Source: Rickettsia tillamookensis
GTDB lineage: Bacteria > Pseudomonadota > Alphaproteobacteria > Rickettsiales > Rickettsiaceae
Direction of reading: 5' to 3'
Length of the DNA: 64,000 nucleotides
NCBI RefSeq assembly: GCF_016743795.2
Contig: NZ_CP060138.2
Coordinates: 124,001 to 188,000, forward strand
Shown: positions 45,904-49,384 of the stretch, piece after piece
Numbering within the stretch: position 1 is the stretch's first letter
How the letters are laid out: each line of letters begins with the position of its first letter
Notes under the pieces: generated by a model
Database searches by the model: none
What the model was told of the DNA's origin: nothing
Seen by the model: only the letters and a program-made list of their open reading frames with translations
Made by a program: the position numbers and the translations under genes

Positions 45904-47061
45904 ATGAAAGATGTTATTTTAATAGCTAATGCCGGCTCATCTAGTTTAAAAATTTCTATTTTTGAAATTCAGAATAAAAAAGTTAAGGATAAAATTTATA
46001 ATATTTTTTTAGAAAAGAACGACAATAAAATATTATTTCATATAAATAAAAAACAGGAATCTGCTACCGATATTAAAGATGATGCTATTGAAATGATGAT
46101 TGATCTTTTTGAAGATTGGTGGAAAAAACAAGAGAATCTCAATTTAATTGCAACCGGCCACCGTATTGTCCATGGCGGGAAAAATTTTAATAAACCGGTT
46201 ATTGTTAATGAAAAAGTTAGTGAAGATTTGACAGTATTAATACCTCTAAGCCCTTTGCATCAACCTTATAATTTGCAGGTACTAGATTTATTTCTTCAAA
46301 AATATAAAGAAATCTCACATATAGCATGTTTTGATACGTCATTTCATTTTACCAATCCGCCTATTACAAAAGCTTTCGGTTTACCGAAAAAATATTATGA
46401 TAAAGGGATAATTCGTTACGGTTTTCATGGGTTATCATATAAATATGTTAGCAGCCATTTTAAAGATATGACAAAGGAAGATTTACCTACAAAGACTATT
46501 ATAGCTCACTTAGGAAGCGGTAGTAGTCTATGTGCTATTAAAAACGGTCTTAGTCTAACAAGTTCCATGGGCTTTAGCGTACTTGACGGTGTTATGATGG
46601 GTACAAGGACAGGTAACCTTGATCCTGGAGTAGTGTTATATCTTATCGACCATGAGAAAATGACTACGAAAGAAGTAACTGAGTTACTATATAAGAAATC
46701 AGGATTACTTGGTATGTCCGGTGAAAGCCCTGATATGCGTACCTTGCTTGCCAGTAACTCACCTGATGCTAAATTTGCTATAGATTTATTCGTGTATCGC
46801 ATTGTACTTGAAATAGGTAAGTTAATTGCTGCCCTTGAGGGGCTTGAGTGTCTAATTTTTACTGCCGGTGTCGGACAGAATTCTCCTGTAATACGTGAAA
46901 TGATTACCGAAAAACTTTTATGGCTAGGCATTAAAATAGATGATACAAAAAACCAAAAAAACGAGCATCTAATAAGTACATCTGATAGTGAGGTTAAAGT
47001 TTTTGCTGTGCCGACAAACGAAGAGCTAATCATCGCTGAAGAAGTGATGAAGTTTTTGTGA
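45904..47061 (+). CDS. ackA: Acetate kinase
   Basis: 385 residues from ATG 45904, chosen because it gives the family start (VILIANAGSSSLKISIF) one base after the pta stop. An in-frame upstream start at 45826 would run inside pta. Kinase motifs are TGHRIVHGG, ACFDTSFH, RYGFHGLSYKY, IIAHLGSGSSL, GTRTGNLDPG and the C-terminal FTAGVGQNSPVIRE. It is similar in length to typical AckA. A degraded duplicate of its last 90 bases lies at 47868-47958. Confidence 0.95.
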   Translation: MKDVILIANAGSSSLKISIFEIQNKKVKDKIYNIFLEKNDNKILFHINKKQESATDIKDDAIEMMIDLFEDWWKKQENLNLIATGHRIVHGGKNFNKPVIVNEKVSEDLTVLIPLSPLHQPYNLQVLDLFLQKYKEISHIACFDTSFHFTNPPITKAFGLPKKYYDKGIIRYGFHGLSYKYVSSHFKDMTKEDLPTKTIIAHLGSGSSLCAIKNGLSLTSSMGFSVLDGVMMGTRTGNLDPGVVLYLIDHEKMTTKEVTELLYKKSGLLGMSGESPDMRTLLASNSPDAKFAIDLFVYRIVLEIGKLIAALEGLECLIFTAGVGQNSPVIREMITEKLLWLGIKIDDTKNQKNEHLISTSDSEVKVFAVPTNEELIIAEEVMKFL

Positions 47062-47101
47062 TTGTTATTTTAAAATATCATCTAATTATAAAATAATAAC
47101 T

Positions 47102-47740
47102 ATGTTATCCAATATAGCTAAAGAAAGAAAAAAGAAATCTTTAGAAACTTTAAGAAAAGAAGGGGTTCCTTATCTTGAATTTTTTCCTCCTTATGATAAA
47201 TGTAAATTAAGAACAAAAGAAGAAATTTCTATTAGAGCCTTGTGTTTGATGGTTATTGCATTAAGAGCAGAAGGATTAAATAAACAAGAAGCATGGCAAA
47301 TAGCAGAAGAATTAGCTATTACAAATGATTTTAGCCCAAAAGAGTTAACTTTTTTAAATAAAGAAAACTCTCCTCCTCAAGATAAAGTTAACTTTTTATG
47401 GCGTTACGAATCTTTGTGGATTTTGTTGTGGGTTCTTGGATATATTAAGGAACTTAAAAGACCTGAAGATATTTGCGATGTTCCTGAGGCGGTAAGTATT
47501 ATAAAAGAGAGAAAAAGAGACAAATTTATAAAAGAAGCTACGCTAAAACCTGTTTCTGAAATACTTGATGTAGCTGATTTAACATTTAGATATCATTGGG
47601 CGGTTAGAAATGCATGGATTAAAAATGAAAAACCACCAGCAAAACTTGATAGTAGCGTTATATATGAAAGACGCTATGCTTTAGAATGGGTATTAAATAA
47701 TTATAATGAAGATTGGGATAATATAGATACGCCTACTTAA
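47102..47740 (+). CDS. DUF4272 domain-containing protein
   Basis: 212 residues that match the DUF4272 family along the length: LRKEGVPYLEF near the start, RALCLMVIALRAEGL, VNFLWRYESLWILLWVLGYI, PEDICDVP, YHWAVRNAWI and YERRYALEWVLNNY...WDNIDT. The function of the family is unknown. It is patchily spread and often linked to contact-dependent or mobile regions, which I recall only in general. It lies between ackA and a duplicated trmD fragment, so it was probably brought in or amplified by the rearrangement there. Confidence 0.88.
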   Translation: MLSNIAKERKKKSLETLRKEGVPYLEFFPPYDKCKLRTKEEISIRALCLMVIALRAEGLNKQEAWQIAEELAITNDFSPKELTFLNKENSPPQDKVNFLWRYESLWILLWVLGYIKELKRPEDICDVPEAVSIIKERKRDKFIKEATLKPVSEILDVADLTFRYHWAVRNAWIKNEKPPAKLDSSVIYERRYALEWVLNNYNEDWDNIDTPT

Positions 47741-47765
47741 TTATTTAAATAACCTGATAAAAATA

Positions 47766-47863
47766 ATATCTCTACTTCACCCTACAATCTTAACAGTTTT
47801 CCTGAAATGTTCCCTAGGGCTCTGGGGCATTCTTTAGCAGGTCAAGCACTGCATAAAAATATC
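47766..47863 (+). pseudogene. Duplicated 5' fragment of trmD
   Basis: About 98 bases resemble the first 32 codons of trmD at 48530 (cttcac.ctacaatcttaac, cctgaaatgtt, cattctttagcagg). The initiator ATG is now ATA, there is a one-base deletion in a T run and several substitutions. It runs straight into an ackA 3' fragment. It cannot be expressed as TrmD. Confidence 0.88.
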
Positions 47864-47867
47864 TTAT

Positions 47868-47958
47868 AATAAGTACTGAAAGCAGTAAGGTTAAAGTTTT
47901 TGCTGTGCCGACAAACGAAGAGCTAATCATCGCTGAGGAAGTGATGAAGTTTTTATAA
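47868..47958 (+). pseudogene. Duplicated 3' fragment of ackA
   Basis: About 91 bases match the last 30 codons of ackA (46971-47061) almost exactly, including gttaaagtttttgctgtgcc and aagagctaatcatcgctga. The terminal codons are TTA TAA instead of TTG TGA. With the trmD fragment before it, this marks the junction of an old tandem duplication. The rest of 47741-48072 is AT-rich with no other gene. Confidence 0.9.
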
Positions 47959-48072
47959 CACAAATTGGTTAATTTTTAATTACTTCTACCTCTATTTTTC
48001 TTTATTAACTTTTTTTGAAATAAAATATATGCAACTATAGATATATTTTTAACTTAAATTTTGAGGGAAGTT

Positions 48073-48478
48073 ATGCCGGAAGATTTTGATAAAAAAGAAA
48101 GCAGAAAAACAAATAAAGGATATTAAAAATAATAAGATAAATCCATATAATGATGCAATGAAGAAAGATTCTAGAGTGAATTTTATGCAGAAGCAAGTTA
48201 TAGCTAAAAACGCAGCAGCAGGTTATAAGACAGCATTAAAAATAGAGCAGCAAGCAAAAGAAGCAGGTATTAGTTTAGATAAAGATGCTATGAGACGCTT
48301 AGAGAAAATAAAAAGTCGTTATATAGAAGCTACTAAGAAAGCAGAATTTCAAAAATTTCAAAGTGATCAAGCTCATAAAACGAATCAACAAAAAGCTGAA
48401 GCATTTAGGAGCGGTGCAACAGCTGCTGCTAAAAAACAAAGAAAAGAAGATTATAGGACAGGTGGGTGGGGTAAATAA
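48073..48478 (+). pseudogene. Small coiled-coil protein with an A-run frameshift
   Basis: A strong GAGGGAAG sits at 48063-48070 before ATG 48073, which begins MPEDFDKK and then stops at a TAA (48124-48126). Dropping one A from the run of six after GAT (48091-48096) joins it to the long frame (KKAEKQIKDIKNNKINPYND... to RTGGWGK, stop at 48478), about 135 residues. The long frame alone would need a TTG at 48086 with no ribosome site. The protein is Lys/Gln/Ala-rich, probably helical, with no family I recognise. It could be a decayed gene or one rescued by slippage on the A run. Confidence 0.65.
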
Positions 48479-48529
48479 TTAAATTATAATTTTATTGCGT
48501 TAATTAGTACTGTCTACTATTTTAAACGT

Positions 48530-49384
48530 ATGTCTATACTTCACGCTACAATCTTAACCGTTTTTCCTGAAATGTTTCCTGGGACTCTAGGACATTCTTT
48601 AGCAGGGCAAGCCCTGCATAAAAATATTTGGTCATATAATGTTATTAATATTCGGGATTTCGGTTTAACTAAGCATAAAAATGTCGATGATGAGGCTTAC
48701 GGCGGCGGTGACGGGCTTATAATGCGTCCTGATGTACTCGGTTGTTCTATCGATCATGCTTTGTCTTTAAATCCTAATGCTGAAATTTACTATCCTTCAC
48801 CTCGCGGTAGAGTCTTTACCCAAAGCCTTGCTAAAGAGATGTTACGGAATATATATTCTCGTGAAATAGAACAGTGTTATACGAAGAATAACTTGGAAAA
48901 GAGCAAGGAATCTGTAAGTCGAGGAGCGGAGCGTACAGAAGTACGTGAGCATCCGAGGACTTACAAAGATGATGTAGCCAATTTGGGGGGTTCATCGAGT
49001 ATAAATCTTATATTCTTATGTGGACGTTACGAGGGGATTGACGAACGTGTAATTGAAGAGTATAATGTTAAAGAAATTAGTGTAGGCGACTACATTTTAT
49101 CCGGCGGAGAAATACCTACCCTTACCATTCTCGATTGCTTAATTAGACTACTGCCAGGTGTTTTAATAAACCAAAATACCTTATCTTCCGAGTCTTTTGA
49201 AGAAGACGGAGAATTTAAGGGCGGGCTTGAATGCGGTCTATATACAAGACCTGAAATTTGGCGTGATCGAGCTGTACCGAGTGTTTTATTATCCGGTAAC
49301 CACAGGCTAATTAATGAGTGGAAAAAAGAGCAATCACGTATGATTACTAAATTACGCCGTCCGGAGTTACTTAAAGATTTATAG
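48530..49384 (+). CDS. trmD: tRNA (guanine-N1-)-methyltransferase with in-frame palindrome insert
   Basis: 284 residues, about 40 longer than usual TrmD, which methylates G37 in tRNAs. The N-terminal part (ILHATILTVFPEMFPG, DEAYGGGDGLIMRPDV, YPSPRGRVFTQ) and the knot (IFLCGRYEGIDERVIEEY, EISVGDYILSGGE) are normal. Between them residues about 117-158 are the translation of a family A palindrome (NNLEKSKESVSRGAER..., VREHPRTYKDDVA). The frame is kept. The insert falls in the loop just before the SAM-binding knot strand and must be tolerated, because trmD is essential and has no second full copy here. Confidence 0.95.
   Translation: MSILHATILTVFPEMFPGTLGHSLAGQALHKNIWSYNVINIRDFGLTKHKNVDDEAYGGGDGLIMRPDVLGCSIDHALSLNPNAEIYYPSPRGRVFTQSLAKEMLRNIYSREIEQCYTKNNLEKSKESVSRGAERTEVREHPRTYKDDVANLGGSSSINLIFLCGRYEGIDERVIEEYNVKEISVGDYILSGGEIPTLTILDCLIRLLPGVLINQNTLSSESFEEDGEFKGGLECGLYTRPEIWRDRAVPSVLLSGNHRLINEWKKEQSRMITKLRRPELLKDL
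48878..49003. repeat. Family A palindrome inside trmD
   Basis: In reverse orientation relative to most copies here: tatacgaag...aacttgg at the left, gccaatttgggggg...cgagtata at the right, with the central pair gcgtaca / gtacgt. 126 bases, a multiple of three, read through in frame. Confidence 0.92.

What the first reader, a model, noticed from the sequence alone, without database searches (positions are those of the whole stretch)
46971..48625. Partial tandem duplication between ackA and trmD with different cargo in each half
The order is ackA - DUF4272 gene - trmD 5' fragment (47766-47863) - ackA 3' fragment (47868-47958) - small coiled-coil gene - trmD. A fused trmD-ackA junction is what a tandem duplication of the ackA-3'/trmD-5' segment leaves. 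Yet the two intervals now hold unrelated genes, so either each lost a different gene from a two-gene original or the site takes up genes repeatedly. This is a candidate integration hotspot.
Basis: partly seen in the sequence, partly recalled or inferred. Interest (0 to 1): 0.75.

Follow-up and report, generated by a model that had tools for sequence, protein, structure and literature searches.

The report
Foreign gene stacked beside resident neighbour
In this Rickettsia chromosome an extra gene of unknown function sits between two housekeeping genes, flanked by broken ends of those same genes, which most likely record the capture of a piece of the matching region from another Rickettsia lineage; the process is known elsewhere, and this is a clear but small new example.

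Summary
In detail: ackA, DUF4272 gene, 98-nt trmD 5' fragment, 92-nt ackA 3' fragment, small coiled-coil (CC) gene, trmD. The interpretation needs revision. The second half (ackA fragment, CC, trmD) is the ordinary Rickettsia interval; the ackA fragment is the resident gene's own displaced tail (0 of 92 mismatches to G002). The first half is the newcomer: the tail of the intact ackA carries other alleles and another stop codon, and the trmD fragment carries alleles of other lineages. DUF4272 is intact in 0 of 22 relatives, so a two-gene original is not supported. Best reading: a donor segment (ackA tail, DUF4272, trmD start) joined at one end by recombination in ackA and at the other illegitimately. 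The sister genome G005 has a chimeric ackA tail that looks like the scar of a later loss. G003 keeps the first 13 codons of a DUF4272-type gene in this same interval, and other genomes carry other cargo there, so a variable slot is supported, though its turnover was not compared with other intervals. No donor with the predicted intact order was found, and the two donor pieces do not point to one lineage.

The parts
45904..47061 (+). ackA, intact, 385 codons; the last ~82 nt (from 46980) and the TGA stop are of donor type
   Evidence: PF00871 366 bits; no stop inside; allele table, site counts
46970..46979 (+). left copy of TAATAAGTAC, just before the switch from resident-type to donor-type ackA
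   Evidence: 2 exact copies in the window; allele switch at 46980
47102..47740 (+). DUF4272 gene, 212 aa, the cargo of the newcomer segment
   Evidence: PF14094 2.5e-59, full length; own genome only among 23 Rickettsia genomes; predicted all-helical, pLDDT 88
47766..47863 (+). trmD 5' fragment, start codon lost, 1-nt deletion; not a copy of the resident trmD
47864..47867 (+). illegitimate junction between trmD fragment and resident ackA tail (place uncertain by a few bases)
   Evidence: alignment; sequences
47867..47958 (+). ackA 3' fragment: the resident gene's original tail, beginning with the right copy of TAATAAGTAC
   Evidence: 0 of 92 mismatches to G002, 1 of 92 to G001 and to G007
47959..48529 (+). 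resident interval, 571 nt: intergenic, small coiled-coil (CC) gene 48086-48478, intergenic
   Evidence: its three parts match relatives at up to 99.1%, 98.3% and 100%
48530..49384 (+). resident trmD, 284 codons
   Evidence: PF01746 141 bits

Best explanation
A piece of chromosome from another Rickettsia lineage, in which DUF4272 lay between ackA and trmD, was captured next to the resident ackA. Shown: the resident allele of the interval stands downstream (ackA tail, CC gene, trmD), and upstream of it stands a second allele made of an ackA tail, DUF4272 and a trmD start that are not copies of the resident sequences. Inferred: the left end joined by recombination within ackA, close to TAATAAGTAC, so that ackA stayed in frame with a donor tail; the right end, inside donor trmD, was joined illegitimately to the resident ackA tail. 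The result is stacking of two alleles of one slot with both cargos kept. Inferred further: the direct ackA repeats let the insert be lost again by recombination, and the chimeric ackA tail in G005 is a scar of such a loss. DUF4272, 40 nt behind ackA, is probably read with pta-ackA; its biochemical role is unknown. My working guess, from the company of MazE/PIN and DMP19 genes in the same slot in relatives, is an accessory gene of the immunity or antitoxin type; that step rests on inference only.
For: (1) In relatives the CC interval is 481-572 bp in 12 of the 13 seen whole (773 in G016), like the second half here (571 nt). (2) ackA fragment 0 of 92 mismatches to G002; the intact tail has 11. 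(3) Sites where the window differs from the consensus of nine relatives agree with G014 in 14 of 20 in the tail and first flank against 3 of 24 in the body of ackA, Fisher P 1.2e-4. (4) trmD fragment: 9 of 12 substitutions shared with other Rickettsia, P 0.0003-0.002. (5) 47074-47757 is the only stretch of at least 100 nt in 24800-49900 without a match in the 47 loci compared. (6) G005 tail plus flank: 3 of 132 mismatches to the best single-crossover chimera of the window's two tails, against 10 (all resident) and 31 (all donor); 7 other genomes gain nothing from a chimera. Window and G005 are sisters, support 0.994 on 19.2 kb. (7) G003 carries 13 of 13 residues of the start of P0002, a Rickettsia DUF4272 protein, at the start of another ORF between ackA and trmD.
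Against: No held genome shows the predicted donor order ackA-DUF4272-trmD; the flanks of P0001 and P0002 could not be seen. The two donor pieces do not point to one lineage: the ackA tail leans to G014, but the trmD fragment is 23 of 98 from G014 and only 9 of 98 from G022 and from G006. The trmD fragment has private changes (start codon, two more substitutions, one deletion), the ackA fragment none against G002, though both should have decayed for equally long if they became fragments in one event; the trmD piece may already have been a fragment in the donor. A tree from 21 chunks, with G005 mostly missing, put the window outside G005, G007, G001 and G002 (0.726), which would weaken the scar reading. 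The crossover place in G005 is undecided between offsets 17 and 88 of 132. The fragments are short and the site tests were made after seeing the pattern. The papers themselves call the process rare (PMC5361080) and recombination in Rickettsia generally uncommon (PMC2662801).
Confidence: 0.7

Rival explanations
1. Tandem duplication of the resident ackA 3' - CC - trmD 5' segment, then replacement of the first CC by DUF4272.
For: The order of pieces and the trmD-ackA junction are what a tandem duplication leaves.
Against: The two tails are different alleles with different 3' flanks, and the trmD fragment carries alleles absent from resident trmD. No trace of a first CC copy was seen: 47074-47757 matched none of the 47 loci compared, which include the CC genes of 16 genomes.
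Confidence: 0.1
2. Insertion of a circular molecule holding ackA tail, DUF4272 and trmD start by a single crossover in ackA (Campbell type).
For: Predicts a direct ackA repeat on both sides and donor-type letters just left of TAATAAGTAC in the right copy; there the window reads CTTATAATAAG against GCATCTAATAAG on the left, and several distant relatives read TATAATAAG or TATAATTAG.
Against: The common stretch is only 92 nt. Plasmid records with DUF4272 relatives: 86, all under 60% identity; the ten genera named in the answer do not include Rickettsia, one more is not named.
Confidence: 0.13
3. Insertion by a transposase or integrase, with TAATAAGTAC as target duplication.
For: 10-bp direct repeat at both borders; transposase ORFs occur near this slot in G006, G012 and G020; in G006 an IS110-type element abuts the same ackA tail about 10 bp from the border seen here.
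Against: The only long ORF listed in 47062-47866 is DUF4272. The sequence right of the left repeat is ackA tail in frame, as homology predicts and a transposon border does not.
Confidence: 0.05

Closest known systems
Homology-facilitated illegitimate recombination (HFIR) of transformable bacteria and in E. coli conjugation (start of abstract of PMC3240628 in a search listing; passages of PMC5361080)
   Same: One end of incoming DNA pairs with homologous DNA, the other end is joined without long homology; net gain of DNA.
   Different: Here inferred from sequence alone, in an obligate intracellular genus; no uptake route was tested. The recipient lost nothing but the end of ackA, which the donor replaced.
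Stacked immunity-gene arrays of Vibrio cholerae T6SS clusters (PMC5361080, passages seen)
   Same: A new allele is placed in front of the old one, which stays behind it; a cut 3' end of a displaced gene can stay too.
   Different: No effector gene or secretion cluster is seen here; the functions of DUF4272 and CC are unknown; one step of stacking, not an array.
Recombination between Rickettsia groups, including small intragenic patches in gltA and coxA (PMC2662801, passages seen)
   Same: Short patches of another Rickettsia lineage inside a housekeeping gene; the transitional group is a partner in gltA.
   Different: Those patches replace; here a gene was added and the resident allele kept.

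Membership tests
Homology-facilitated illegitimate recombination | one junction lies in homologous sequence | tested here: met
   ackA runs in frame from resident-type to donor-type sequence, switch at or before 46980
Homology-facilitated illegitimate recombination | the other junction joins unrelated sequences with little or no homology | tested here: met
   trmD fragment joined to ackA tail at about 47864-47867; by eye at most a few shared letters
Homology-facilitated illegitimate recombination | incoming DNA is from another strain or species | tested here: inconclusive
   tail and trmD alleles fit other lineages but no donor was found and the two pieces point to different lineages
Homology-facilitated illegitimate recombination | DNA uptake or conjugation, RecA dependence | not testable with these tools
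   needs experiments
Tandem duplication | both copies derive from one resident sequence | tested here: not met
   different alleles, stop codons and flanks
Integration hotspot | different cargos at one site in relatives | tested here: met
   CC, MazE-like, PIN, ankyrin, DMP19 and DUF4272 ORFs in own genome plus 22 relatives; that the events were independent is inferred
Integration hotspot | more turnover than other intervals of the genome | not tested
   only 24800-49900 was scanned for window-specific stretches
DUF4272 (PF14094) | profile match over the curated cut-off, full length | tested here: met
   200.3 bits against cut-off 27, positions 1-208 of 208

The most novel reading that the evidence does not exclude
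The ackA-trmD interval is an exchange slot of the genus: accessory genes travel between Rickettsia lineages as alleles of this slot on ordinary chromosomal DNA, are stacked in front of the resident allele by one-sided recombination, and are removed again by recombination between the gene-end repeats, so that an obligate intracellular genus has a gain-and-loss cycle at a fixed site with no integrase.
Probability: 0.35. Interest if true: 0.6.

Novelty: new member of a known kind. Interest (0 to 1): 0.45.

Why it matters
It suggests, at near base-pair resolution, how a bacterium with a shrinking genome and no integrase gene at the site can add a gene without losing the resident one, and how the addition can be undone. 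Gene-end fragments of this sort could be used to find other recent gains in Rickettsia and to trace which lineages have met in one host.

Tried and rejected

That the window is R. tillamookensis is a guess from recalled size; a table passage gives 1.44 Mb and transitional group for that species (PMC13400510).

Full report
Observation. The repeats are far beyond chance.

Which half is new. In relatives the stretch from the ackA end to the trmD start was seen whole with CC in 13 genomes: 481-572 bp in 12, 773 bp in G016. The second half here is that interval: 571 nt, whose three parts match relatives at up to 99.1% (5' intergenic), 98.3% (CC) and 100% (3' intergenic). The ackA fragment is the original tail of the resident ackA: 0 of 92 mismatches to G002, 1 of 92 to G001 and to G007, followed by the same 3' flank as in relatives. 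The first half is the newcomer: 47074-47757 matches none of the 47 loci compared, the only such stretch of 100 nt or more in 24800-49900. DUF4272 was found in the own genome alone among 23 Rickettsia genomes and in 2 of 85 genomes of the family, own included. Its third-position GC is 16%, against 26% in ackA and 31% in trmD. In the large protein set 10 relatives were found, the closest 91% (P0001) and 82% (P0002, Rickettsia endosymbiont of Graphium doson) identical.

Not copies of resident sequence. From 46980 on, the intact ackA departs from the resident consensus in a dense patch, ends in TGA instead of TAA, and has another 3' flank. Of sites where the window differs from the consensus of nine relatives, G014 agrees in 14 of 20 in the tail and first flank and in 3 of 24 in the body (Fisher P 1.2e-4). 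The trmD fragment differs from resident trmD at 12 sites, 9 of them with letters found in other Rickettsia, where 24-31% is expected by chance (P 0.0003-0.002). Against a single tidy donor: the trmD fragment is closest to G022 and G006 (9 of 98 differences each) and far from G014 (23 of 98), and it has private changes (lost start codon, two more substitutions, a 1-nt deletion) while the ackA fragment has none against G002.

Borders. The 10-mer TAATAAGTAC occurs twice in the window, at 46970-46979 and 47867-47876, which are the two borders. On the left ackA stays in frame across it; on the right it follows the trmD fragment. This is what one homologous and one illegitimate joint leave; a target duplication or a circle would leave something similar, and these are kept as rivals.

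A scar in the sister genome. In G005 (three contigs; the first 1,485,148 bp; R. felis by recalled size) the ackA tail has the donor-type patch up to the position matching 47040, then resident letters and flank from 47058. The best single-crossover chimera of the window's two tails fits G005 with 3 mismatches of 132, against 10 for the resident and 31 for the donor sequence; of eight genomes tested only G005 gains from a chimera, and the crossover place is undecided between offsets 17 and 88. A tree from 32 chunks (19.2 kb) makes the window and G005 sisters with support 0.994; a tree from 21 chunks, mainly downstream, in which G005 is mostly missing, places the window outside G005, G007, G001 and G002 with 0.726. 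Loss of the insert in G005 by recombination between the ackA repeats is the simplest reading, but separate gene conversion is not excluded.

The slot in the genus. CC-type sequence lies by trmD in 16 of 22 relatives (G001, G002, G004-G011, G013, G015, G016, G019, G020 as a remnant, G022). G003 has a MazE-like ORF, a shortened PIN ORF, an ankyrin ORF and a DMP19 ORF; G017 has MazE-like, PIN and an ankyrin-type ORF that stays below Pfam's cut-off; G012 and G020 have a MazE-like ORF, with DDE transposase ORFs further out. In G018 the interval is 7 kb with other genes, and in G014 and G021 ackA and trmD lie apart. In G003 the DMP19 ORF begins with 13 residues identical to the start of P0002 (chance about 1.5e-14 for residues 2-13 from composition; the DNA match to the window's gene is 32 nt at 87.5%, E 4e-5). 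So a DUF4272-type gene, or its start, once stood in this interval in a second lineage. The DMP19 ORF is in 1 of 23 genomes.

Function. DUF4272 is intact, all-helical in prediction (pLDDT 88, pTM 0.88), without a clear fold match or a family of known role.

What is known. The pattern works like homology-facilitated illegitimate recombination (listing; passages of PMC5361080, which also call it rare), where a new allele is set in front of the old. Recombination between Rickettsia groups, including small patches in gltA and coxA, is on record, though called generally uncommon (passages of PMC2662801). No held paper has ackA, trmD and Rickettsia together, and one has both HFIR and Rickettsia, with one occurrence each (listing only).

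Noticed in passing
G006 locus L077, about 4072-5301 (- strand): An IS110-type transposase gene (PF02371, PF01548) lies beside an ackA tail fragment that begins at TGAAAGCAG, about 10 bp from the border used in the window; the ackA 5' part lies about 37 kb away.
   Followed up: partly
L074 3079-3087 and 4530-4540; L091 2050-2060: In G003 the DUF4272-start/DMP19 segment is bounded on both sides by AATGTCCC, at the start of trmD on the right; in G017 the ankyrin-type ORF runs straight into the trmD start at that point.
   Followed up: partly
window 48848-49003: TrmD residues ~107-158 look like an insertion: matches in most relatives split around it, and it recurs at dozens of places in these genomes, as Rickettsia palindromic elements do (name recalled).
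   Followed up: no
ackA in 23 genomes: ackA is broken, frameshifted or gone in many Rickettsia (for example 0 matches in G012 and G019, 34 residues in G020), yet open here with the donor tail.
   Followed up: no
L090 2615-3214; L093 537-796: G016 seems to have a partly duplicated CC gene; in G019 the ackA start appears fused to the middle of CC by a deletion.
   Followed up: no
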